From positions 1-64,000 of the forward strand of contig CAMDBX010000007.1 in the NCBI GenBank assembly GCA_945889445.1: a DNA stretch of 64,000 bases. The letters run 5' to 3'. Within the stretch, counting starts at the first letter, position 1. Each line of letters starts with the position of its first letter. This document shows, piece after piece, positions 38,094 through 50,670 of the stretch. The position numbers and the translations under genes were made by a program. The notes beneath the pieces were generated by a model that was not told the origin of the DNA, ran no database searches, and worked only from the letters and a program-made list of their open reading frames with translations. Source of the DNA: Rhizobium sp. Q54. GTDB taxonomy: Bacteria; Pseudomonadota; Alphaproteobacteria; Rhizobiales; Aestuariivirgaceae.

Positions 38094-38432
38094 TCAGACG
38101 ATGACGAGTTCGACGCCCTTGTGCAGCTTCTGCAGGTTGGGAAGCGACTTGGACTGCCACGGAATCTTGCTGGAGCCCACCACCTTCACCGGCATGTCGG
38201 GATGCTTCCTGAGTTCGATGGTGAACTTGGCGAGGAGGTTGATGCCGGAGCTGTTGAGGAATTCGAGCTGGGTGAGATCCAGAACGACGTTCTGCGGCTT
38301 CTCGGCAAGCACTTGCTGCATCAGTTCGAGGATCGGCTGGTAGGCATCCGTCCCCGACAGGCGGAGCGTTCCTTCATAGTGGATTATGGAACCTTCGTTC
38401 CACACATTGTATTCGCCGGTCTTGATTTCCAT
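38094..38432 (-). CDS. STAS domain protein (anti-sigma factor antagonist type)
   Basis: A 112-aa single STAS domain. The switch site is DLTQLEFLNSSGINLLAKF, with a serine positioned for phosphorylation by a GHKL kinase and dephosphorylation by a PP2C phosphatase. It is the last gene of the 43028-38094 cluster, next to such a GHKL protein and a SpoIIE phosphatase, so it is probably their switch partner. ATG 38430-38432 is preferred over an upstream TTG that crowds the ribosome site. Confidence 0.85.
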   Translation of the reverse strand: MEIKTGEYNVWNEGSIIHYEGTLRLSGTDAYQPILELMQQVLAEKPQNVVLDLTQLEFLNSSGINLLAKFTIELRKHPDMPVKVVGSSKIPWQSKSLPNLQKLHKGVELVIV

Positions 38433-38452
38433 GTGAGGCAAACCTTTGGAGT

Positions 38453-38998
38453 TCAGTTAAGGGTGAGGGCCGCGTGGGTGCTCAGCATCACCGCGCCGCC
38501 CGTTGCAGAAGAGCGGAAGTCCCAGCCGAGACGCGCTCCGTAATCATTCATCAGCGTGAGAAGTCCAAGGCCGGAGCCCGAAGAATTCTCGTCTGCCGCA
38601 TTGGCCTCGATCCGCTCGATCAGCAGCTCGCCGGGGTCACGCGACGTGATTTCCTCGATCAGCGCCTGGAAGCGGCTCGCCACCTCGGCCTCGGTATCAT
38701 TGCTGACGGTGAGTTCGAAATTGCCCTGGTGCAACGAGCAGTCGACGGAGATCGTGCCCGGCACCCGGAACTTGATGGCGTTCTCCAGCAGTTCGTTCAC
38801 CAGATAGACGATCGAGTGCCGGGCTTCATTGTAGTCTGCTCCTTGCTTGGCATGGTGAAGCGCGAAGACGTCGCCAAGGAATTCGCAGGTCTCGCTGGCG
38901 TGCTGCCAGCTGACGCCCAGAGGGCCATCCGAAATGGTGATCCGCATGGCAAAGGCCCCGGACCCGTTAATGCGCGCAGTGTCTCCGAATGTCTTCAT
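38453..38998 (-). CDS. GHKL ATP-binding protein (anti-sigma/switch kinase-like, slr1658 type)
   Basis: A 181-aa protein with an intact Bergerat fold: N-box VNELLENAIKF near residue 70 and a G-box SSGSGLGLLTLMNDYG near residue 140. It resembles the slr1658/SiaB-like group that phosphorylates STAS-type antagonists. No phosphoacceptor histidine or transmembrane part is present. It stands between the STAS gene (20 bases) and the membrane SpoIIE phosphatase gene (3 bases), giving a full kinase/antagonist/phosphatase trio. Confidence 0.8.
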   Translation of the reverse strand: MKTFGDTARINGSGAFAMRITISDGPLGVSWQHASETCEFLGDVFALHHAKQGADYNEARHSIVYLVNELLENAIKFRVPGTISVDCSLHQGNFELTVSNDTEAEVASRFQALIEEITSRDPGELLIERIEANAADENSSGSGLGLLTLMNDYGARLGWDFRSSATGGAVMLSTHAALTLN

Positions 38999-39001
38999 GA
39001 T

Positions 39002-41374
39002 TCACCTGTGCTTGAGGACGACGAGGGTGATGTCATCGTGAACTTTCTGCTTGCCGATATGTGCCCGGACATCGGCGATGATTGCCGCGGCAATGCCTGA
39101 TGCACTTGCCTTGTGGGCGCGTTGCGCAGATGCGATCAGACTGTCGATGCCGTAGAGCCTGCCGTCCTCGCTCTCGGCCTCGGTGATGCCGTCGGTGAAC
39201 AGCACCATGGTGTCGCCCGTGTTGAAGGGTAACGTCGTGCTCGCCAGGAAGTCGTTGATGTTGGGCTCGAGGCCGATGGGGAAACCGAGATCCATCGTAT
39301 CAAGCCTTTCGACGCTGCCATTGTTGCGAATGACGATCACTTCCTCATGCTGGCCGGAGATGATGGCTTGATCGTTGGCATAGTCGACGAAGGCCAGGGA
39401 CAGGTGCCGGTCGGAGCGTGTACGCTCGACATTCTTGAAGATCGAGCGGTTGAGCACGTCGAGGAACTCGCGCGGATCAGTGACGCCACGTTCATAGAGC
39501 GCGCGGCTGACAGACTGCACCATGAGCATCAGCACGCCGCTTTCGACGCCGTGGCCGGTAACGTCGCCGATGCCGATCTTGGCGCCGCCGGGAATGTAGA
39601 GAACGTCGTAATAGTCGCCGCCCACCTCTTCGGCCGGTTCGGCGTAGCTGGCGATGTCGAGGTCCGGTATGCGCTCCAATTCGTCAGGTGTCGGCATCAC
39701 CATCAGCTGAATCTTGCGCGCCACGTCAAGTTCGGCGCCGAGCCGCAGGTTTTCATCCTTCATCCTGTCGTACAGGCGCTGGATTTCGTCATTGGCGGAG
39801 GCAAGCTGACTGGTGCGCTCGGCCACCCGGTGCTCCAGCATTTCCGTGTGCTCACGGATCTCGCGTGCCATGGAATTGAATGCCGTTCCGACGAGGGCAA
39901 CCTCGTCGCGGCCGCTCACCGGAACCTGGACGTTGTAGTCGCCCTTCGTCAGGCGCTTCGCGGCGTCAGCTAGTCCCACAAGCCCTGCGGTGAAGCGCCG
40001 CGACAACGGAACCGTCAGCGCCAGCGCCAGCGCCAGAAAGCCCAGCACCGAGGCCAGTATGCCTTTGACGATGCTGTTCGTGGCGCTGCTGATCTGCTTC
40101 TGGGCGCCATAGAGCGAGGCATAGATCTCGCTGTCCGGCACCACGAAGCCGAGCATCAGATTTTCCGCGGCGATGCCCTTGTTGGGTTGCCACATGTTCA
40201 TCGGCTCGATGGGGTGCATCACCACAAGCAGGCCCACGGGCTTGCCGTCCTTTTCCACGGTCACGTGGTCGATGGTGGTGGCGCCTTGCCGCGGGATGCG
40301 CAGATTCGCCACGTCCTTGAAGCTGCTCTTGAACAGGCTCCGCTCATGACCGGTGACGCCGGACCCGGTGGCCGCGACCTCCGTGAGGCCGAGCAATGCC
40401 TCGCCCTCCTTGGTCACGGTCAGCACATTGCCGTTCTGCTGGGAGAGGAATGCGAAGCCCGTCTGGGCGATCTTCACGTCTTCCACCAGCTTGGTGAGTT
40501 GATCGAGCGTCACGTCCATGGCCACCATGCCCGCGATCGCGTCGCGCGACTTGGTGTAGAGCGGGTGGAAATAGCTGACGATCAGCTTGCCGGTGATGGC
40601 ATCGACATAGGGAGCCAACACCGTGATATCGGTGGGAACCGGCCGCGACGCGGGGTCCTTCAGCCAGCCCTGCCAGGCCTCGTAGACGCCGGGGAAGAAG
40701 AAGTCCCACCAGTTCTGCTGGTTGTTGCCGGGGTAGAGCTTGTCGAAGGTCTGGGCTTGCTCGGAATAGGGCATGGTGCGCATGATCGGCCGTTCCTTGG
40801 GGCCGACGTAGTACATCTGTAGCTTGTCTTGCCCCGAAGCCATGAGAGATGGCACCACCAGGTCGAAGAATTGCGTGTTGCGCACCGCATCCACCACGTC
40901 GGGCCGCATGTTGCCCGCCGCGTCAAGCAGATAGCCCCACACGCTGATGACCGACGGCTCGCCCGACGCATTCTGGAGCCAGTTGGCATCGCGATTGTAT
41001 GTCAACTCGTCCCGGAAGTCGGGATAGCGTTCGAGGAACTGGCCGAGATCCTGGTTCAGTTCCGGATGGTCGATAAGGTCCTGGCTCAGCCTGGCCAGTG
41101 CCGTCACCTGGTCGAAGGTGCGGTTGAACATCAGCGTCGCGCGCTGTGCGGTCATGTCGATGTAGCGGGTGAGATACTCTTCATTCGCCTTGGTGAGGCC
41201 GCTCTCGATTTCCGCCGAAGCGTCATGCGACAGCTTGTTGACGTTCCACAGTGCAACCAGGCCGCCGCCCAGCAGTGACGCGATCACCAGCGCGCCCACC
41301 AGCGCGATGAACTTGGTGCGGGTGCTGGTGAGGAAGCTTCCCTTCACCGGCGAGCTGTCTGTTCCGCCGCTCAT
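39002..41374 (-). CDS. Membrane sensor phosphatase: Cache-like sensor, HAMP, SpoIIE/PP2C
   Basis: A 790-aa protein. TM1 is at about residues 22-46 (FIALVGALVIASLLGG...), followed by a roughly 370-residue periplasmic Cache-like region (LIVSYFHPLYTKSRDAIAG, GMVAMDVTLDQLTKLV), TM2 near 435, HAMP (about 455-510), a coiled linker and a C-terminal PP2C domain. Metal-binding residues are present in EEVGGDYYDVLYI, GIGDVTGHGVESG, VLFTDGITEAE and HDDITLVV. It resembles SiaA-type sensors: an external signal would trigger dephosphorylation of a STAS partner. It overlaps the methyltransferase gene by 4 nt. Confidence 0.88.
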   Translation of the reverse strand: MSGGTDSSPVKGSFLTSTRTKFIALVGALVIASLLGGGLVALWNVNKLSHDASAEIESGLTKANEEYLTRYIDMTAQRATLMFNRTFDQVTALARLSQDLIDHPELNQDLGQFLERYPDFRDELTYNRDANWLQNASGEPSVISVWGYLLDAAGNMRPDVVDAVRNTQFFDLVVPSLMASGQDKLQMYYVGPKERPIMRTMPYSEQAQTFDKLYPGNNQQNWWDFFFPGVYEAWQGWLKDPASRPVPTDITVLAPYVDAITGKLIVSYFHPLYTKSRDAIAGMVAMDVTLDQLTKLVEDVKIAQTGFAFLSQQNGNVLTVTKEGEALLGLTEVAATGSGVTGHERSLFKSSFKDVANLRIPRQGATTIDHVTVEKDGKPVGLLVVMHPIEPMNMWQPNKGIAAENLMLGFVVPDSEIYASLYGAQKQISSATNSIVKGILASVLGFLALALALTVPLSRRFTAGLVGLADAAKRLTKGDYNVQVPVSGRDEVALVGTAFNSMAREIREHTEMLEHRVAERTSQLASANDEIQRLYDRMKDENLRLGAELDVARKIQLMVMPTPDELERIPDLDIASYAEPAEEVGGDYYDVLYIPGGAKIGIGDVTGHGVESGVLMLMVQSVSRALYERGVTDPREFLDVLNRSIFKNVERTRSDRHLSLAFVDYANDQAIISGQHEEVIVIRNNGSVERLDTMDLGFPIGLEPNINDFLASTTLPFNTGDTMVLFTDGITEAESEDGRLYGIDSLIASAQRAHKASASGIAAAIIADVRAHIGKQKVHDDITLVVLKHR

Positions 41375-42540
41375 AACGGCTTCCGTCCGGAAGCGGCCCA
41401 GATCGGCCAGCCGGCATAGCCCTTGGGGTGCAGGGCGGCATAAATGTGGTCCTGGAATCCCTGCCGGAACTTGGCGACGAACTCGGGCGAGTCGCCGCGG
41501 TCACGCGCCATCTCGCCGGCGTAGACGTTCTCCCAGGACTGGATGATGTCCGCGAATCCTTGCGGGTCGCCATCGAGGTTGGTGACCATGAAGCTGTCCA
41601 TCTTGATGTCCTCGAAGCCCGCATCGATCAGGAAGCGGCGGCTCTTGGGGCCGAGCTCGATGTCCATCTTGTAGTCCGCCCACAGCCTCGCGACTTCATT
41701 GTAGGTCCACTGGATCGAGTCCGCGCGGGGTTCGCCCAGGCAGTGCGAGTTCTTCTCGTTGGTGACGTAAACCCGCCCGCCCGGCTTGCAGATGCGGTAG
41801 AGCTCCTTGAGGATCAACTCCGGCTTGTCGAACACCTGCAGCGAATGCCGGCAGGTGACGAAGTCGAACTGGCTGTCCTCCAAGATCATTTCCGACGCGT
41901 CGCCATAGACATACTCGATGTTGCTGACGCCGAAGTCCGCCGCAACCTTGCGCGCATAGTCGAGGCTCGTGCGCGAGTGGTCGAGTGCGATGATGCTGGC
42001 CGGGCTGAACTCCTTCTGCACAAGCACCGCGAAGTCGCCGATGCCGCAGCACACATCGGCCATGGCCATGCCGGGCCTGAGCCCGTGGCGTGGCAGAACG
42101 TGCCGCTCATGGGTCCATGTCAGCTTGGTCTGGGCGCGCAGGATCGGAATGAAGCCGCCCTCTTCGAGGTAGGACTGGCCGGGGTAGAAGTCCTGGTCAT
42201 ATTCATTGACGGACACGTTCGGCAGCCGGGACGCGAGCGGCAGGAACTTGCGCGTCGACCATCCCATCACGCTTGACGTCACCACTTCGACGCGCAGGTC
42301 GGACCGCTTGTCGCAGACCTGGGACACGAGATTGGTGATGACACGGAAGGCGACGTTGTTGAGCCGCGCCAGCCTCTTGACGTTCAGGTAGAAGGTGCCG
42401 CGGACCTTGCCCAGAGCGGCGTCCAGGGCTTCGGCGAGCGGCCTGATTTCTGCTTCGTTGCGCGGGCGCAGCTTGCCGGCGATGACGAATTCCTGGTTGT
42501 TCTCATTGAAACTGGCCTGGTAACTGCGATCGAGACTCAT
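41371..42540 (-). CDS. STAS-like domain fused to SAM-dependent methyltransferase
   Basis: A 389-aa fusion. Residues about 1-135 look like an slr1659-type STAS domain (GTFYLNVKRLARLNNVAFRV aligns with the switch helix). The usual serine is replaced: LNNVAF here, against LNSSGI in the STAS protein encoded at 38094-38432, so switching by phosphorylation at that place seems lost. Residues about 160-389 are a class I methyltransferase (MADVCCGIGDFAVLV, YGDASEMILEDSQFDFVTC, ICKPGGRVYVTNEK). The target is unknown. Start ATG 42538-42540; 4-nt overlaps on both sides show tight coupling in the operon. Confidence 0.75.
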   Translation of the reverse strand: MSLDRSYQASFNENNQEFVIAGKLRPRNEAEIRPLAEALDAALGKVRGTFYLNVKRLARLNNVAFRVITNLVSQVCDKRSDLRVEVVTSSVMGWSTRKFLPLASRLPNVSVNEYDQDFYPGQSYLEEGGFIPILRAQTKLTWTHERHVLPRHGLRPGMAMADVCCGIGDFAVLVQKEFSPASIIALDHSRTSLDYARKVAADFGVSNIEYVYGDASEMILEDSQFDFVTCRHSLQVFDKPELILKELYRICKPGGRVYVTNEKNSHCLGEPRADSIQWTYNEVARLWADYKMDIELGPKSRRFLIDAGFEDIKMDSFMVTNLDGDPQGFADIIQSWENVYAGEMARDRGDSPEFVAKFRQGFQDHIYAALHPKGYAGWPIWAASGRKPL

Positions 42541-43028
42541 GCTGCCGCTCCTTCGAGCGCCATCTCTGCCGCAAGCTTCAATCGGTTGCCGTTGTCCGGG
42601 ACAATGGAGATGCGCGCCCGGTAGTCGACCGCCACTTCGAGCAGGCCAAGGTGCGGGTCGGCGCTGCCCGGCGAGAACAGCGCCGAGTGATAGAGCTCCG
42701 CGACGTCCGGCCGCTTCAGCCTCTGTGCTGCCTCGCTGTAGAAGGTCAGTGTCGCCGCATCGCATGGAAGATCGAGTTCGATCACGTCCGCCTCGCCCGA
42801 GCGACTCACCCGGCAGCAAAAGTTACCCTCCGGCCCATGGTGGGCGAATGCAATCTCCAGAAGCTCGTTCAGAGCTGAACTCAACAGGTTTGCATAGAGC
42901 AGAGAGTCAGCCCGGTTGTGGCTCACCATCCGGGCCAGGTAGGAGGAGATGCGGTCGCAATGCAGCCACTCCGAGGCGAAGGCCTCGATGCCCATGGAGA
43001 TTTCGACTAGCGGTCTGTTGCCACTCAT
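42537..43028 (-). CDS. Degenerate GHKL-like protein at the head of the signalling operon
   Basis: A 163-aa soluble protein. The stretch NELLEIAFAHHGPEGNF resembles the N-box of the neighbouring GHKL kinase (NELLENAIKF), but the metal-binding second Asn is Ile and no glycine-rich ATP lid or G-box is visible. It may be a non-catalytic binding partner, for example of the STAS-like/methyltransferase fusion whose gene it overlaps. It is the first gene of the minus-strand cluster. Homology here rests on one short motif. Confidence 0.6.
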   Translation of the reverse strand: MSGNRPLVEISMGIEAFASEWLHCDRISSYLARMVSHNRADSLLYANLLSSALNELLEIAFAHHGPEGNFCCRVSRSGEADVIELDLPCDAATLTFYSEAAQRLKRPDVAELYHSALFSPGSADPHLGLLEVAVDYRARISIVPDNGNRLKLAAEMALEGAAA

Positions 43029-43239
43029 TCCCTTGATCCCGGCATGTCCTCAGGCGGCCCGGCGGCAGGGGCCATCGGCCGATCCGCAGAGGAGGTTTGC
43101 AAAACGTGAAGGTTACGACGGGTGCCGCCTTGCGGTGATGCTAGCGGCAGAGATTTGTCCGAACAAGGAAATTTAGCTTGCACCGGTGCTTGTCACGGCA
43201 CAGGTTCGCCGCAACTTGTCATCGTCAGGAGAGGCACAC

Positions 43240-43965
43240 GTGACCGCAATAAGCAACGGCAGGAAGGCCCGCCCCCCCGTTTTCATCTCTGCGCCCATTG
43301 CCGCGCTGGTCGAAGGCATCTATCGCGCCGATACCACCATCGGTTTGTTGCGCCAGAAGGGCAATCTCGGCATCGGCACCTTCAATGACCTTGATGGCGA
43401 GTTGGTGCTTCTGGACGGCAAGGTCTATTGCCTGCGTCCGCAAGGCGATGCCGAGGTGATTTCCGATGACGTCCACACACCCTTCGCCTTGACGACCCAG
43501 TTCGAGGGTGACACGGAAGACCGCTTCGAGAAGATAGAGGAAGCCGCCTTCGAGCACGCGCTGCTTGACCTCGTGCCGTCGACCAACCTGATGTACGCGA
43601 TCCGCATCGATGGCCGCTTCGACTATATACGCGCCCGTTCGGTGCCGAAGATGATGAATTACCTGCCGCTCGCCGAGATCGCCAGTTTGCAGACGGTGTT
43701 CGAGTTCAAGGACGTGGAGGGAACCATCGTGGGCTTCTATACGCCCAACTTCCTGTCCGGCGTGCATTTGCCAGGCCTCCACCTGCACTTCATCACCAAG
43801 GACCGCACGCGCGGCGGCCACCTGCTTGCCGCTGCCACCAATGGCGTGACGGTGAAGCTGCAGCACGCGCCCGCCGTTGAACTGGGCCTGCCGATGACCT
43901 TCGACTTCCTCACCATGGAGCGGGTGCGCGACATGCAGGCCGACCTGGACAAGGTCGAGCGCTGA
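43240..43965 (+). CDS. budA: Alpha-acetolactate decarboxylase
   Basis: A 241-aa enzyme converting (S)-2-acetolactate to (R)-acetoin. Signatures are FISAPIAALVEGIYRADTTI, LGIGTFNDLDGELVLLDG, and the zinc-binding region GVHLPGLHLHFITKDRTRGGH with three histidines. GTG at 43240 is chosen because AGGAGAGG lies just upstream. No acetolactate synthase or acetoin dehydrogenase gene is adjacent, and it is divergent from the signalling operon across 211 bases. Confidence 0.9.
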   Translation: MTAISNGRKARPPVFISAPIAALVEGIYRADTTIGLLRQKGNLGIGTFNDLDGELVLLDGKVYCLRPQGDAEVISDDVHTPFALTTQFEGDTEDRFEKIEEAAFEHALLDLVPSTNLMYAIRIDGRFDYIRARSVPKMMNYLPLAEIASLQTVFEFKDVEGTIVGFYTPNFLSGVHLPGLHLHFITKDRTRGGHLLAAATNGVTVKLQHAPAVELGLPMTFDFLTMERVRDMQADLDKVER

Positions 43966-43973
43966 AACGAAAA

Positions 43974-43996
43974 GGGCGCCGGTCATCCCGGCGCCC
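43974..43996 (-). terminator. Hairpin terminator between budA and the GPP34 gene
   Basis: gggcgccgg pairs with ccggcgccc around a 5-base loop. The left flank is A-rich (aaacgaaaa), which gives a U-rich tail on the minus strand, so it ends the GPP34 transcript; it may also end budA. Confidence 0.65.
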
Positions 43997-44019
43997 CTCA
44001 TGAAGTCGATGCCGGCCGG

Positions 44020-44670
44020 TTACATATGGGCCGGTGTGGCAAGCGCCATGGCGCGCTCGAAGATCTCGATATAGTGGTTCACGTTCTGGCCGATCAGTTC
44101 CATCTTGGAGAACTTGGCGATCCGCTCGCGTGCCAGTTTCAGTTCGGATTGCGGCACGATCTGGCGGATGATGCCGCAGGTCTCGGCCAGCGACATCAGG
44201 CAGCAATCACGCGGGTCGGGCAGGCCGTCGCGCAGCAGCACTTCGAGAAGGCGCAGCTTCACTTCGCGGATTTCCTTGCCGTCGATGGCCGGATAGCGGC
44301 GGGTCTTGAGGAACCACAGAAGCCTGCCCTCGGTTTCCACCAGGATCCTCTTGTCGCAAAGGCGCTTCAGCGCCTGCTCGCGCACCGTGTCGCCCAGTTC
44401 GATCAGCTGGTTGATCAGGTAGTCGGCGCTGCTGTCGAAGTCCGGGCCCGAAAGGCGGGCCAGAACCGGGTCGAGCGACGAATCGCCAGTCGGGGTCTTG
44501 CTTACAACCCAAACGCGATTGAGGTCGTTGTCGAGGCGGTCCTGCAGTGCCAGTTCCATGATCGCTGCACCGACGAAGCCGGCGCGCTGGTACTCCAGCG
44601 GAATGTCGACAAAGCCGCCGTCTTCGTCCTTGAGGGTGAGGAGGAGGAACTCCTCCGGAACTGTCAGCAT
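44020..44670 (-). CDS. GPP34 family protein
   Basis: A 216-aa protein matching the Golgi phosphoprotein 3 (GPP34) fold: MLTVPEEFLLLTLKDEDGGFV at the start, AGFVGAAIMELALQDRL, and repeated helical segments with IREVKLRLLEVLLRDGLPDPRDCCLMSLAETCGI. Eukaryotic homologues bind phosphatidylinositol 4-phosphate at the Golgi; bacterial function is unknown, and peripheral membrane binding is only a possibility. It sits between budA and the second switching module, divergent from the latter. Confidence 0.8.
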   Translation of the reverse strand: MLTVPEEFLLLTLKDEDGGFVDIPLEYQRAGFVGAAIMELALQDRLDNDLNRVWVVSKTPTGDSSLDPVLARLSGPDFDSSADYLINQLIELGDTVREQALKRLCDKRILVETEGRLLWFLKTRRYPAIDGKEIREVKLRLLEVLLRDGLPDPRDCCLMSLAETCGIIRQIVPQSELKLARERIAKFSKMELIGQNVNHYIEIFERAMALATPAHM

Positions 44671-44857
44671 GTTTAAGGCCCCGTAGAAAAATGTTTGAGC
44701 GGCGGTTCCTGCCGCGCGCTGCACCATACTGATTTTTCCGGCCAAGCGAAATCATCATTTGCTGGCGCCACCGCATTGTCCGGGGCTGCCGGGGCTTGAC
44801 CTGCGGCGCCGACATGCGATACCCGCCAGTGAAACGAAGTCTGAAGGGAACTCGCGC

Positions 44858-45280
44858 GTGATCAGCCGCATCGACATGGCGCTGGCGAATGATGTCCAGG
44901 AGGTGGCGCGCGTCATCGACACCCTGGAGGAGTTTGGTGCCGCGAACGGCATTCCGGCGGAGCAGTCGCTGCGCTTCGGGCTGGCGCTCGACGAACTGAT
45001 CACCAACATCATCTCCTATGGGCTTGCTGGCCGCGGCGATGGCACGATCACGCTCTCCATCGAGCATCGTGGCGGTATGCTGTGTGCCGAACTCGCCGAC
45101 AACGGCCCGGCCTTCGACCCGCTTGCCGCGGAAACCGTGCCGCCCTCCGGCGATATTGAAACCCGGGAGGTGGGGGGACTGGGCCTCACCCTCGTGAAAA
45201 GCTTCATGGACCGTCTTGACTACAGGCGTGCCGATGGGTTCAACCGACTGACTATGGAAATGAAAGTGAAGGCAGCCTAG
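44858..45280 (+). CDS. Anti-sigma factor-type serine kinase (RsbW-like GHKL)
   Basis: A 140-aa RsbW/SpoIIAB-like protein. The Bergerat fold is intact: N-box LALDELITNIISYGL near residue 50, ELADNGPAFDP, and G-box GGLGLTLVKSFMDRL near residue 110. It likely binds ATP and phosphorylates the STAS protein encoded 25 bases downstream. The GTG at 44858 has AAGGGA upstream; an ATG at 44876 is the alternative. It is first in a kinase/STAS/phosphatase/LssY_C operon. Confidence 0.87.
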   Translation: MISRIDMALANDVQEVARVIDTLEEFGAANGIPAEQSLRFGLALDELITNIISYGLAGRGDGTITLSIEHRGGMLCAELADNGPAFDPLAAETVPPSGDIETREVGGLGLTLVKSFMDRLDYRRADGFNRLTMEMKVKAA

Positions 45281-45305
45281 GCTGCCTCATCAGGGAGACA
45301 AGAAA

Positions 45306-45644
45306 TTGACCAGCCTCAACCATGAAATCGTGAATGGCGCCCTCGTGCTCAAGCCCTCGCGGCGCATCGATTCAAGCAGCGCAAAGGCCTTCGAGGACGA
45401 TGCCGCAGCCCTTCTCGACAAGGGCCCCAAGAAGGTGGTGATCGACGCCACCGACCTCGACTACATCTCGTCGGCCGGCCTGCGGGTGATCCTCACCACG
45501 GCCAAGAAGGCCAAGTCGGCCGGCGGCGGCCTCACCATCGCCTGCGCTAAGAACAATGTGAAGGAAGTCCTTGCCGTTTCCGGCTTCGACAACATCTTCG
45601 GCCTGCACGACAGCGTCGCTCAGGCGATCTCCGCACTCGCGTGA
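45306..45644 (+). CDS. STAS anti-sigma factor antagonist
   Basis: A 112-aa STAS protein starting at TTG with GGGAGA upstream. The phosphorylation helix is intact: DATDLDYISSAGLRVILTTA, with two serines at the usual spot. It lies between its probable kinase and phosphatase; the stop overlaps the phosphatase start (GTGA). Typical role: when unphosphorylated, it binds the kinase or anti-sigma protein and releases a target. Confidence 0.88.
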   Translation: MTSLNHEIVNGALVLKPSRRIDSSSAKAFEDDAAALLDKGPKKVVIDATDLDYISSAGLRVILTTAKKAKSAGGGLTIACAKNNVKEVLAVSGFDNIFGLHDSVAQAISALA

Positions 45645-46540
45645 GTGCGGTCGGGGGCATGGATGCAGCAGCCGGTGCCGAGCACCGGCTTGCTCTGCTT
45701 GAGGCTGAACTCGCCAGCGTCAAGGCGGAATTCGACGATCTGAACCTTCTCTATCAGGCGACGATCGAGCACGGCGAGGCGGTGGAAGATCAGCTCGCAG
45801 AAGCGAACCTTGCTCTGCAGACGACGCAGAAGCGGCTGTCGGAGGAGTTGACGGAAGCCGTCAACTACATTTTCTCGATCCTGCCGGAGCCGCGCAAGGC
45901 GGCGCCGCGCACGGATTGGCTGCTGGTGCCCTCAACCGAACTCGGCGGTGACAGCTTCGGCTACCACGAGATCGACGCTGACCATATGGCCTTCTATCTC
46001 CTCGACGTCTGCGGCCACGGCGTCGGTGCGGCACTGCTGTCGGTAACGGCAATCAACGTGCTGCGGTCAGCCGCACTTCCCAACACCGATTTCCGTGACC
46101 CCGGTGCCGTTCTCTCGGCGCTGAACGATGCCTTTCCCATGGAACGGCAGAACAACATGTATTTCACCATCTGGTATGGCGTTCTGAAGCGCAGCACGGG
46201 TGAGCTCCGTTATGCGAGTGGCGGCCACCCTCCATCGGTGTTGCGCAAGGCGGATGGCTCGGTGCAGACGCTGTCAACGCCGGGCATTGCCATCGGCATG
46301 CTGGAGGGCATGAGCTACCGCGCAGTACATTGCATGATCGGTGACGGCGATTGCCTGCATCTGGTCAGCGACGGCACTTACGAGGTCGAGACAGCGCCGG
46401 GCGAAATGCTTGAGTTCGAGGCCTTCGTCGAACGGCTCAGCCGCAGCGAAAGCCCGGGAGAGGTGCTTGACTGGGTGCGCGGCCTGAATGGCCCCGGCCC
46501 GCTGCCGGATGATTTTTCGTTGCTCACCGTCAGGTTCTGA
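45641..46540 (+). CDS. SpoIIE/PP2C family serine phosphatase, soluble
   Basis: A 299-aa protein with an N-terminal coiled coil (residues about 15-70, HRLALLEAELASVKAEFDD...) and a C-terminal PP2C/SpoIIE domain: STELGGDSFGYHEID, FYLLDVCGHGVGAALLS, LHLVSDGTYEVE and LPDDFSLLTV hold the metal-binding aspartates. No membrane segment or receiver domain is present, unlike the phosphatase encoded at 39002-41374. It starts at GTG overlapping the STAS stop and should dephosphorylate that STAS protein. Confidence 0.87.
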   Translation: MSAVGGMDAAAGAEHRLALLEAELASVKAEFDDLNLLYQATIEHGEAVEDQLAEANLALQTTQKRLSEELTEAVNYIFSILPEPRKAAPRTDWLLVPSTELGGDSFGYHEIDADHMAFYLLDVCGHGVGAALLSVTAINVLRSAALPNTDFRDPGAVLSALNDAFPMERQNNMYFTIWYGVLKRSTGELRYASGGHPPSVLRKADGSVQTLSTPGIAIGMLEGMSYRAVHCMIGDGDCLHLVSDGTYEVETAPGEMLEFEAFVERLSRSESPGEVLDWVRGLNGPGPLPDDFSLLTVRF

Positions 46541-46546
46541 CGCGCG

Positions 46547-47368
46547 ATGAGACTGTTGCAGCGCCTGTGGCGGCACATCATGGTGTTCCTGCTGGGCGTG
46601 GTCACCGTCTGGCTGATTGTCTTTGTGGTCTTCCAGGTCACTGACAATACGCTGCCCTGGATCGTCGCCGTCGCCGTCACCTATGGTCTCGCCGCCTACA
46701 TCATTCTTCCGCGTGCCATCCGGATGGGCCTCAAGGTGCTGCACCGCCAGCATGTGCCGCAATACACGACCACGGGCGACGGGCTGCCCGCCGATCCGGT
46801 GAATATCGCCTTGATCGGCACACTGCCGCAGCTGCGCGCCGCCTTCGCCGCCATCGGCTGGACCGAGGCTGATCGGCTCGGATTGGTGAGTTCATGGCGC
46901 ATGGCGCGGGCCTTCGTGCTGAACAAGCCCTATGCCAGCGCGCCCTTCAGCACGCTCTTCCTGTTTGGCCGCGGACAGGACATCGGCTTTCAGATGGCCA
47001 TCGGCGACAGCCCTCGCAAGCGACATCATGTGCGGTTCTGGAGCATCAGCCAGTCTGTCACCCTGAACGCACTCGATACGGCGGGCTTCTGGCTGAACAC
47101 CGACCGTCCGCCGGACGACGAGGCGGCGCTGTGGGTCGGCGCCGCCACGCGCGATACTGGCTTTTCGCTTGCCTGGCTGACGTTCCAGATCACGCACGCG
47201 ACGGCCGCTGATACCAATGCCGAGCGTGAGTTTGTCCTGTCCGAGCTCAAGGGCAGGCAACTCATCGGCGACATCACGTTGCATGACGAACGCTCCGAAC
47301 TGCCGTCGAAGCGGGTTAACCGCTATGTCTTCGACGGGGACGTCGGCGTGGCAAGCCTCACGGGCTGA
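46547..47368 (+). CDS. LssY C-terminal domain membrane protein
   Basis: A 273-aa protein with two N-terminal membrane helices (IMVFLLGVVTVWLIVFVVF and WIVAVAVTYGLAAYIIL) and a soluble domain matching LssY_C: DPVNIALIGTLPQLRAAFAAIGW, FSTLFLFGRGQDIGFQ and KRHHVRFW. LssY_C proteins accompany type I secretion or PAP2-type membrane enzymes, but the role is unknown. It begins 6 bases after the phosphatase, so it is probably the membrane output or partner of this switching operon. Confidence 0.78.
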   Translation: MRLLQRLWRHIMVFLLGVVTVWLIVFVVFQVTDNTLPWIVAVAVTYGLAAYIILPRAIRMGLKVLHRQHVPQYTTTGDGLPADPVNIALIGTLPQLRAAFAAIGWTEADRLGLVSSWRMARAFVLNKPYASAPFSTLFLFGRGQDIGFQMAIGDSPRKRHHVRFWSISQSVTLNALDTAGFWLNTDRPPDDEAALWVGAATRDTGFSLAWLTFQITHATAADTNAEREFVLSELKGRQLIGDITLHDERSELPSKRVNRYVFDGDVGVASLTG

Positions 47369-47421: not shown

Positions 47422-49719
<2,298 letters not shown>

Positions 49720-49722
49720 TTA

Positions 49723-49737
49723 TTATCGTTGCGATAA
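49723..49737. promoter_or_regulatory. LysR-type T-N11-A palindrome in the katG-oxyR intergenic region
   Basis: ttatcg, ttg, cgataa: a perfect palindrome containing T-N11-A, the core of LysR-family sites. It ends 9 bases before the oxyR ATG, a position suited to autorepression, while katG control would use the rest of the 153-base gap. Binding is predicted, not shown. Confidence 0.55.
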
Positions 49738-49746
49738 GAAAAAGCT

Positions 49747-50670
49747 ATGAACAATCTCTCGCTTCGCCAATTCCGCTATTTTGAGGCCCTGGCCCAGCAC
49801 GGCCATTTTGGCAGGGCGGCCGAGGCCTGCGGCATTTCGCAGCCGGCACTCTCGACCCAGATCAGGGACCTCGAAGACATCGTGGGCGGGGCGCTGGTGG
49901 AGCGGAGCGCCCGGCAAGTGCGATTGACCCGTCTTGGTGAGGAATTCGCGCCCCGCGTGCGTGACATCCTGCGGGCGGTTGACGAGTTGGGCGACCTTGC
50001 CCGCGGCTATCAGGGGTGGCTGTCGGGCCGGTTGCGCATCGGTGTCATCCCCACCGTTGCGCCCTATCTGCTGCCCGGCATCGTCGGCAGTCTGAACCGT
50101 TTGCATCCGGGTCTCGACATCCATGTGCGTGAGACCCTCACGGCAAAGCTTATCCGGGAGCTCTCTGAAGGCCGCCTCGACGCGGCCATCGTGGCGCTGC
50201 CTGTGTCCGAACCGTCCCTCATGGAAGCTCCTCTATTTGCTGAAGAATTTCTCCTGGTCAGGCCCGCTGAAGATGCCCGGAAGCCGGTGCCCAACATCGA
50301 GATGCTGAAGGAAATGCGCCTGCTCTTGCTGGAGGAGGGCCACTGCTTCCGCGACCAGGCCCTGGCCTTCTGCGACATGACCTCGGCCTTGCCGCGCGAG
50401 GTGCTGGAGGGCAGTTCGCTGTCGACGCTGGTCCAGATGGTCGGTGCGGGGATCGGGGTCACCCTCATCCCGGAAATGGCTGCCCCTGTCGAAACCCGCT
50501 CGGCCAACGTTTCGCTTGCCCGCTTTGCCGGTCCGCAGCCCCGCCGCACCATCGGCATGATCTGGCGGCGAACCAGCCCGCTTGCCGGCCAGTTGCAGCA
50601 CATCGCGGCAATCGTCCGTCAGGCGGCGGACGACCTGCGGACGCCTGCCAGCGCCCTGCAACCGGCATGA
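49747..50670 (+). CDS. oxyR: Hydrogen peroxide-sensing LysR regulator
   Basis: A 307-aa LysR-type regulator. The N-terminal winged helix-turn-helix (RQFRYFEALAQHGHFGRAAE...SQPALSTQIRDLE) is followed by a ligand-like domain containing the redox pair Cys200 and Cys209 (GHCFRDQALAFC), with the same nine-residue spacing as Cys199/Cys208 in E. coli OxyR. Oxidation by H2O2 forms the disulfide and activates genes such as katG, located divergently here. Confidence 0.94.
   Translation: MNNLSLRQFRYFEALAQHGHFGRAAEACGISQPALSTQIRDLEDIVGGALVERSARQVRLTRLGEEFAPRVRDILRAVDELGDLARGYQGWLSGRLRIGVIPTVAPYLLPGIVGSLNRLHPGLDIHVRETLTAKLIRELSEGRLDAAIVALPVSEPSLMEAPLFAEEFLLVRPAEDARKPVPNIEMLKEMRLLLLEEGHCFRDQALAFCDMTSALPREVLEGSSLSTLVQMVGAGIGVTLIPEMAAPVETRSANVSLARFAGPQPRRTIGMIWRRTSPLAGQLQHIAAIVRQAADDLRTPASALQPA

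What the first reader, a model, noticed from the sequence alone, without database searches (positions are those of the whole stretch)
38094..47368. Double partner-switching island with no sigma factor
Two full kinase/STAS/phosphatase sets lie within 9 kb: one sensing the periplasm (Cache-HAMP-SpoIIE), one soluble. They flank acetolactate decarboxylase, a GPP34 protein and, downstream, an LssY_C membrane protein. With no sigma factor, the output may be a membrane or metabolic process. This is my best candidate for an undescribed system.
Basis: partly seen in the sequence, partly recalled or inferred. Interest (0 to 1): 0.75.

Follow-up and report, generated by a model that had tools for sequence, protein, structure and literature searches.

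The report
Sigma-free switch feeding a methyltransferase
A conserved bacterial gene set that looks like a protein-phosphorylation switch appears to end not in a gene-reading factor but in a methylating enzyme fused to a copy of the switch protein, and the same set sits in a well-studied root-nodule bacterium where it can be tested.

Summary
Besides two phosphatase/kinase/STAS sets there is a third, degenerate pair: a slr1658-like kinase homologue without the ATP-site asparagine, and a slr1659-like STAS domain without the phospho-serine, fused to a class I SAM methyltransferase. They form one five-gene operon (pseudokinase, STAS-methyltransferase, Cache-HAMP-SpoIIE, kinase, STAS), present in 26 of 26 other loci holding the fusion, among them a second island in the same genome, and on Sinorhizobium pSymB. 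In 397 genomes of the order, slr1659-type STAS and the fusion occur in the same 21. No sigma factor was found on either island contig. Best explanation: a sigma-free partner switch whose output is the methyltransferase, the pseudokinase holding it until dephosphorylated STAS displaces it. Lost residues, operon structure and rate covariation fit; binding, ATP use and substrate are untested. The second module with acetolactate decarboxylase and GPP34 is a steady companion only in this family; in rhizobia a GGDEF-EAL gene is the neighbour instead. New variant of a known kind; no description found in the searches run.

The parts
42537..43028 (-). KIN_A2: degenerate slr1658-like GHKL protein (predicted pseudokinase hub)
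   Evidence: NF047703 43.2 bits (cut-off 100); 22 of 23 homologues match NF047703; profile-profile 96.6% to KIN_A; N-box Asn kept in 0 of 30 loci, first G-box Gly in 1 of 30, second in 17 of 30
41371..42540 (-). STAS-MT: slr1659-like STAS domain (about residues 1-121) fused to class I SAM methyltransferase; predicted effector
   Evidence: NF047705 34.8 bits (cut-off 100) and UbiE/Methyltransf_11/25 hits; STAS part 94.5% to STAS_A profile; phospho-Ser position N in 26, M in 3, S in 1 of 30 loci; SAM motifs invariant in 24 aligned sequences; overlaps neighbours by 4 nt on both sides
39002..41374 (-). SpoIIE_A: dCache-HAMP-SpoIIE PP2C-type phosphatase, predicted periplasmic sensor
   Evidence: PF07228 126.3 bits, PF00672 47.7, PF02743 36.3 (below its cut-off of 45)
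38453..38998 (-). KIN_A: slr1658-type kinase, N-box and G-box kept
   Evidence: NF047703 173.9 bits (cut-off 100); N-box Asn 30 of 30, second G-box Gly 30 of 30, first 29 of 30
38094..38441 (-). STAS_A: slr1659-type STAS protein with phospho-Ser motif (LNSSG)
   Evidence: NF047705 137.6 bits (cut-off 100); S-S-G in 30 of 30 loci
43234..43965 (+). acetolactate decarboxylase (family-specific companion)
   Evidence: TIGR01252 200.8 bits; in 6 of 26 other loci
44020..44745 (-). GPP34-domain protein (family-specific companion)
   Evidence: PF05719 116.8 bits; in 6 of 26 other loci
44861..45280 (+). KIN_B: RsbW/RsbA-type HATPase_c_2 kinase of module B
   Evidence: PF13581 80.2 bits
45306..45644 (+). 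STAS_B: anti-sigma-antagonist-type STAS protein of module B
   Evidence: TIGR00377 70.8 bits (cut-off 53.45)
45641..46540 (+). SpoIIE_B: soluble PP2C-type phosphatase of module B
   Evidence: PF07228 138.2 bits; in 11 of 26 other loci
46547..47368 (+). LssY_C protein (occasional companion)
   Evidence: PF14067 174.1 bits; in 3 of 26 other loci, no match in the C88 stretch

Best explanation
The core is a five-gene, sigma-free partner-switching operon whose output is a methyltransferase. SHOWN by sequence: a sensor phosphatase, a kinase with its ATP-site motifs and a phosphorylatable STAS (SpoIIE_A, KIN_A, STAS_A), plus a second kinase/STAS pair that has lost the N-box asparagine and nearly always the phospho-serine, with the second STAS fused to a methyltransferase whose SAM motifs are kept. 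INFERRED: the two classical jobs of an anti-sigma-type kinase, phosphorylating the STAS protein and holding the effector, are split over two paralogues. KIN_A phosphorylates STAS_A at rest. The pseudokinase KIN_A2 holds the STAS-methyltransferase through its STAS domain. A periplasmic signal on the Cache domain activates SpoIIE_A, which dephosphorylates STAS_A; STAS_A then binds KIN_A2 and frees (or otherwise switches) the methyltransferase. The substrate is unknown; a widely present small molecule or lipid is my guess. Module B is a second, soluble switch that may feed into the same process in some lineages.
For: Five genes in fixed order and on one strand in 30 of 30 loci measured, all gaps 71 nt or less, KIN_A2/STAS-MT overlapping in 27 of 30 and STAS-MT/SpoIIE_A in 26 of 30 (start codons chosen by script or record). 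In 397 genomes the 21 with slr1659-type STAS over the cut-off are the same 21 with STAS-MT; on plasmids STAS-MT in 120 records, STAS_A in 121, KIN_A2 in 118. Kept and lost residues differ cleanly between the two pairs: STAS_A Ser 30 of 30, STAS-MT N26/M3/S1; KIN_A Asn 30 of 30, KIN_A2 0 of 30. The methyltransferase part is the most conserved piece (mean pairwise identity 0.74, against 0.39-0.63 for the other parts), and among the 50 plasmid rows listed has no relative between 36% and 71% identity, those above being the fusion family. Rate covariation: KIN_A2 has partial correlation with the STAS part of STAS-MT (0.50) and with STAS_A (0.57), against 0.00 with the methyltransferase part, -0.06 with KIN_A and -0.19 with SpoIIE_A; with any one of five clades left out the two values stay at 0.42-0.63 and 0.32-0.61. 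That is the pattern expected of a protein exchanging those two partners.
Against: No binding, phosphorylation or enzyme data. Rate covariation on 26 related loci is suggestive only: the permutation keeps clades but not the tree within them; the expected live pair KIN_A/STAS_A reaches only 0.31 and the two parts of the fused protein only 0.15; with clades left out the other KIN_A2 values wander from -0.33 to 0.34. One of 30 STAS-MT proteins (L036) keeps Ser at the phospho position, and 10 of 30 carry Thr one place on, so an alternative phospho-site is not excluded; KIN_A2 keeps the N-box Glu in 30 of 30 and the second G-box Gly in 17 of 30, so residual nucleotide binding is not excluded. The STAS part of STAS-MT also covaries with KIN_A (0.45), which allows KIN_A as its partner.
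Confidence: 0.5

Rival explanations
1. STAS-MT is held directly by the active kinase KIN_A as a non-phosphorylatable competitor of STAS_A, and KIN_A2 is a stabilising or scaffold subunit of STAS-MT rather than the switch hub.
For: The STAS part of STAS-MT covaries with KIN_A (partial 0.45) as well as with KIN_A2 (0.50); KIN_A2 and STAS-MT genes overlap in 27 of 30 loci, as genes of obligate complexes often do (general knowledge).
Against: KIN_A2 covaries with STAS_A (0.57), which a pure STAS-MT subunit would not need.
Confidence: 0.25
2. The operon controls c-di-GMP, as SiaABC controls SiaD: the switch acts on the GGDEF-EAL protein encoded upstream and the methyltransferase is an accessory.
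For: A GGDEF-EAL gene (55-90% identical to the S. medicae protein) lies 66-322 nt upstream on the same strand in 14 of 31 loci; the 13 of these that are in the tree form one clade; domains; the SiaABC precedent (PMC7647112, passages).
Against: Not found at E 1e-20 in the held stretch of the other 17 loci, window included; one of these, L003, has no upstream sequence. The best matches of that protein in five Aestuariivirga-family genomes are only 33-40% identical, whereas STAS-MT is in all the loci.
Confidence: 0.12
3. A conventional sigma-directed switch whose sigma factor is encoded elsewhere; STAS-MT is a bystander that picked up a STAS domain.
For: Sigma factors can be unlinked from their regulators (general knowledge); the genome has 7 Sigma70_r2 matches.
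Against: None is on C7 or C88; STAS-MT comes with the other four genes in 26 of 26 loci and slr1659-type STAS was never found without it in 397 genomes.
Confidence: 0.08
4. One reading: modules A and B act jointly on acetolactate decarboxylase, GPP34 or LssY_C as a membrane or metabolic process.
For: In the window's family the block is kept, including a second, rearranged copy on C88.
Against: Those genes were not found in 20 (ALDC, GPP34) and 23 (LssY_C) of 26 loci that hold module A, one of them (L003) a short contig; five further GPP34 matches in the same genome had no clear switch gene within about 1.5 kb. Against this, one GPP34 of another family (L075) has a STAS-like match beside it.
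Confidence: 0.05

Closest known systems
SiaABCD of Pseudomonas aeruginosa (PMC7647112, passages read; PMC8457831, search listing with start of abstract)
   Same: Sensor PP2C phosphatase plus kinase plus STAS-like protein with an enzyme, not a sigma factor, as output; the window's HAMP-SpoIIE part matches the SiaA model (118.1 bits).
   Different: Far below the SiaA (700) and SiaB (85) cut-offs; the candidate output enzyme is a methyltransferase fused to a STAS domain, not a diguanylate cyclase; there is a second, degenerate kinase homologue.
slr1658/slr1659 superfamily regulators (NCBIfam NF047703, NF047705); slr1658 of Synechocystis (PMC7555055, passages)
   Same: KIN_A and STAS_A are members over the cut-offs. 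Disruption of slr1658 in Synechocystis reduced recovery from iron limitation and raised Pgr5, as told in PMC7555055.
   Different: KIN_A2 and the STAS part of STAS-MT are diverged relatives below the cut-offs; the passages of PMC7555055 name no methyltransferase; the other 3 of the 4 papers were seen as listing only.
RbaVWY of Rhodobacter capsulatus (PMC3999984, abstract and outline)
   Same: Alphaproteobacterial partner switch for which no sigma partner was found; the STAS protein seems to be the determinant. Resembles module B in kinds of gene.
   Different: No STAS-methyltransferase or pseudokinase in the abstract.
SpoIIAA/SpoIIAB/sigma-F and RsbV/RsbW/sigma-B
   Same: Same logic of kinase, antagonist and phosphatase (general knowledge); the STAS_A profile weakly matches solved RsfB and SpoIIAA-type chains over the phospho-Ser stretch (E 0.0022 to 0.087).
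   Different: No linked sigma factor; kinase and holding functions apparently split over two paralogues.
UbiE/MenG-type methyltransferases
   Same: The catalytic domain resembles them (66.1 bits to TIGR01934).
   Different: Below the family cut-off (158.35) and fused to STAS; the solved relatives found are assorted class I methyltransferases, substrate not inferable.

Membership tests
Partner-switching system | PP2C-type SpoIIE phosphatase | tested here: met
   PF07228 126.3 and 138.2 bits, cut-off 25; activity not tested
Partner-switching system | GHKL serine kinase with N- and G-boxes | tested here: met
   KIN_A motifs kept in 30 of 30 (Asn) and 29-30 of 30 (Gly); KIN_B is HATPase_c_2, its residues not counted
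Partner-switching system | STAS protein with phosphorylatable Ser | tested here: met
   STAS_A SSG in 30 of 30; phosphorylation itself not tested
Partner-switching system | exchange of binding partners | not testable with these tools
   only indirect: rate covariation
Sigma-directed partner switch (SpoIIA/Rsb) | sigma factor as linked target | tested here: not met
   no Sigma70_r2 match on C7 or C88; a distant sigma partner is not excluded
SiaABCD | SiaA and SiaB model scores | tested here: not met
   118.1 of 700 and 21.6 of 85 bits
SiaABCD | diguanylate cyclase SiaD in the operon | tested here: not met
   no match to the GGDEF-EAL protein in the window at E 1e-20; a GGDEF-EAL neighbour, not in the operon proper, in 14 of 31 loci
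slr1658/slr1659 superfamilies | score over NF047703/NF047705 cut-offs (KIN_A, STAS_A) | tested here: met
   KIN_A 173.9, STAS_A 137.6, cut-off 100
slr1658/slr1659 superfamilies | same, for KIN_A2 and STAS-MT | tested here: not met
   43.2 and 34.8 bits of 100; profile comparison supports distant kinship, 96.6% and 94.5%
UbiE/MenG methyltransferase | score over TIGR01934 cut-off | tested here: not met
   66.1 of 158.35 bits
Class I SAM methyltransferase | SAM motif I and acidic residues kept | tested here: met
   D162, C164-C165-G166-I167-G168-D169, D187, G213-D214 invariant in 24 aligned sequences; that these are the SAM motifs is family knowledge; activity not tested

The most novel reading that the evidence does not exclude
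A partner switch that controls a methyltransferase by direct sequestration: the antagonist gene was duplicated and fused to an enzyme, the kinase gene was duplicated and lost catalysis, so the duplicated dead pair became the output stage and the live pair the input stage. It would be a general recipe for putting any enzyme under partner-switch control without a sigma factor, present in nodulating rhizobia.
Probability: 0.42. Interest if true: 0.78.

Novelty: new variant of a known kind. Interest (0 to 1): 0.62.

Why it matters
The sigma-free partner switches met in the papers seen here end in a diguanylate cyclase (SiaABCD) or in unknown targets (RbaVWY, SypA). This one points to a recognisable enzyme, fused to what looks like its docking domain, so the output can be assayed directly. 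It also looks like a case where the two jobs of an anti-sigma-type kinase were split by duplication. The same operon lies on pSymB of Sinorhizobium meliloti 1021, a standard laboratory strain, so the idea is testable.

Tried and rejected
Rejected: (1) acetolactate decarboxylase, GPP34 or LssY_C as the general output: most of the 26 loci with module A lack them; GPP34 is over its cut-off in 5 of 170 genomes, and of 8 places elsewhere that match the window's GPP34, 1 (L075) has a STAS-like match beside it and 7 have no clear switch gene in about 1.5 kb. (2) The second island as an assembly duplicate: it is 50-84% identical, rearranged, and branches beside the other seven loci of the family (fork 81/92, drawn open). 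(3) Filing as SiaABCD or UbiE: cut-offs not reached. (4) A cyanobacterial plasmid methyltransferase (Stanieria, hit) as a second STAS-methyltransferase: no switch gene is annotated within 6 kb, in a gene table known to be incomplete.

Led nowhere: substrate from solved structures (searches give only remote relatives); literature on the Sinorhizobium genes (0 papers for SMb20447-SMb20452; 6 papers for the prefixes SMb2044/SMb2045, 3 read in passages, naming SMb20442 or SMb20443 only, 3 seen as listing); 0 papers; 1 paper, listing only; listings, of which PMC7647112, PMC8256260 and PMC3999984 were opened as stated; on GPP34 lists mostly papers on an insecticidal protein of that name. Not used in counts: L010 and L011 (28% methyltransferase-only hits without the operon); L028, L052, L053 (second fetches of the places of L002, L005, L006); the short loci L012-L024, L029-L033, L039-L051 (same places as longer ones). 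L003 was left out of the rate analysis for its cut KIN_A2, L027, L035 and L067 as near-duplicates; L064 was left out of the residue, gap and tree sets. Alignments A5 and A6 hold 24 and 23 of the 27 loci then at hand.
Full report
Observation. Reading the operon on the minus strand adds two genes. From 43028 down to 38094: KIN_A2 (42537-43028), STAS-MT (41371-42540), SpoIIE_A (39002-41374), KIN_A (38453-38998), STAS_A (38094-38441). On the other side of acetolactate decarboxylase (43234-43965) and GPP34 (44020-44745) lies module B: KIN_B, STAS_B, SpoIIE_B, followed by LssY_C. The genome has four SpoIIE matches: two here and two on contig C88.

A second island. Contig C88 has counterparts of ten of the eleven genes (all but LssY_C) at 50-84% amino-acid identity. 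Relative to block B (acetolactate decarboxylase to SpoIIE_B) the five-gene operon is turned round, and there are open frames that look to me like transposase pieces between acetolactate decarboxylase, GPP34 and KIN_B (label from reading only). The C88 copy branches beside, not inside, the other seven loci of the window's family, at a weak fork (81/92). That the linkage is kept through such rearrangement speaks for a working unit.

Conservation. The STAS-MT protein was used as bait. It is in 7 of 69 genomes of the family, 4 of 385 of a class sample, 6 of 398 of a phylum sample and 21 of 397 of the order, the own genome counted each time; only the best few candidates of a genome were scored. All places found in these calls were fetched or already held. 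Of the loci brought in, L010 and L011 (28% methyltransferase-only hits) lack the operon. In 26 of 26 distinct loci with full-length STAS-MT besides the window, C88 counted, the other four genes are present (L003 begins inside KIN_A2). Gaps were measured in 30 loci (window, these 26, three plasmid loci): same strand and order throughout, 71 nt at most; KIN_A2/STAS-MT overlap in 27, STAS-MT/SpoIIE_A in 26. Plasmid records: 120 with STAS-MT at 60-80% identity, mostly Sinorhizobium (80) and Rhizobium (24), including pSymB of S. meliloti 1021, where all five genes match in order. I looked at the neighbourhood of four plasmid records that hold it. S. meliloti locus tags would be about SMb20448-SMb20452 if numbering runs on from the TRAP small permease gene SMb20443 named in PMC12542648 (passage) in the gene order of S. 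medicae; this is inference.

Co-occurrence. In the same 397 genomes the slr1659 family model finds 21 genomes over its cut-off, the same 21 handles as STAS-MT. On plasmids: STAS_A 121 records, STAS-MT 120, KIN_A2 118 (one STAS_A record each is from Kovacikia and Burkholderia, not looked into). The methyltransferase part alone finds 120 plasmid records at 60-80% identity and 70 below 60%; in the 50 rows listed those below lie at 26-36%.

The dead pair. KIN_A2 is a diverged slr1658-type protein (43.2 bits against a cut-off of 100; 22 of 23 homologues match the family; profile match to KIN_A 96.6%). The STAS part of STAS-MT is a diverged slr1659-type domain (34.8 bits; 94.5% to the STAS_A profile). 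Over 30 loci: STAS_A keeps Ser-Ser-Gly in 30; STAS-MT has Asn in 26, Met in 3, Ser in 1 at the first Ser, with Thr one place on in 10. KIN_A keeps the N-box Asn in 30; KIN_A2 in 0 (Thr 14, Val 5, Leu 4, Ile 3, Met 3, Ala 1). KIN_A2 keeps the first G-box Gly in 1 and the second in 17; both proteins keep the N-box Glu in 30. That the Asn serves Mg-ATP binding and that the first Ser is the phosphorylated one is family knowledge recalled from SpoIIAB/SpoIIAA; the STAS_A profile weakly aligns with solved RsfB and related chains over this stretch. The methyltransferase keeps the residues of its SAM motifs in 24 of 24 aligned sequences and is the most conserved part of the operon (mean pairwise identity 0.74; STAS_A 0.63, SpoIIE_A 0.59, KIN_A 0.48, STAS part 0.48, KIN_A2 0.39).

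Rate covariation. On 26 non-redundant loci, distances of KIN_A2 show partial correlation with the STAS part of STAS-MT (0.50) and with STAS_A (0.57), against 0.00 with the methyltransferase part, -0.06 with KIN_A and -0.19 with SpoIIE_A. Leaving out each of five clades in turn keeps the two values at 0.42-0.63 and 0.32-0.61, while the other three wander between -0.33 and 0.34. None of 2000 within-clade label shuffles reached either value. Yardsticks in the same table are modest: the expected live pair KIN_A/STAS_A 0.31, KIN_A/SpoIIE_A 0.33, the two parts of the fused protein 0.15; and the STAS part also correlates with KIN_A (0.45). I read this as: KIN_A2 deals with both STAS proteins, and the STAS part may deal with both kinases. 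It is indirect evidence; shuffling does not fully remove shared ancestry.

Mechanism. The best reading is a partner switch with a live input stage (SpoIIE_A, KIN_A, STAS_A) and a dead output stage (KIN_A2, STAS-MT). A signal at the Cache domain would raise unphosphorylated STAS_A, which takes KIN_A2 away from STAS-MT. The direction (release activates, or binding activates) and the substrate are open. 'No sigma factor' is not new in itself: SiaABC acts on an enzyme (PMC7647112, passages), RbaVWY has no sigma partner found (PMC3999984, abstract), SypA has an unknown target (PMC8256260, passages).

Companions. Module B goes with the operon in the window's family; SpoIIE_B is also near it in two Roseibium loci and three loci of another family, KIN_B and STAS_B (28-36% identity) only in the two Roseibium loci. 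A GGDEF-EAL gene sits upstream on the same strand in 14 of 31 loci: all 13 rows of one clade of the tree (order-sample families f175 and f278 with the Sinorhizobium medicae, Aminobacter and Rhizobium plasmid loci) and L064 of S. meliloti, which was not in the tree; it was not found in the other 17. So the operon stays fixed while its neighbours change by lineage, with signalling proteins in both cases.

Limits. That no description was found rests in an open-access library that lacks most subscription papers; the cyanobacterial paper on slr1658 (Zer et al. 2018) was seen only as cited in PMC7555055.

Noticed in passing
G000 contigs C217, C121, C112, C103, C55 (L070, L076, L080, L081, L082): The genome holds five more GPP34 matches without a clear switch gene within about 1.5 kb; C112 has an internal TAG, C55 is partial and under the cut-off, C103 is cut by the contig end; GPP34 may be spreading and decaying here.
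   Followed up: partly
L075 (G851:C1:1910156-1910770): A GPP34 gene of another family has a STAS_B-like match (39.8%, 1.8e-18) right beside it, so a GPP34/STAS link may exist outside this family.
   Followed up: no
L063:8474-8992, L066:8108-8623, L067:4394-4900: KIN_A2 homologues are annotated 'ubiquinone biosynthesis methyltransferase UbiE' in public records although no Pfam family matches the S. medicae protein; the label would fit the next gene better.
   Followed up: partly
L001:5014-7412: Open frames that look like transposase pieces lie between acetolactate decarboxylase, GPP34 and KIN_B in the second island (label from reading only).
   Followed up: no
window 47422-50670: A peroxidase-family (PF00141) gene, in my reading katG, and a LysR regulator gene follow the island; open frames of similar size to the peroxidase lie at the same place in L002, L007 and L009.
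   Followed up: no
L005:5480-7195: Beside the operon in Roseibium lies a gene that looks to me like a type VI secretion TssA/ImpA protein; recalled resemblance, not tested (sequence).
   Followed up: no
NZ_CP140903 74609-74782: An S. medicae plasmid of 332 kb carries a partial STAS_A match (residues 25-82, 55%) that may be a remnant.
   Followed up: no
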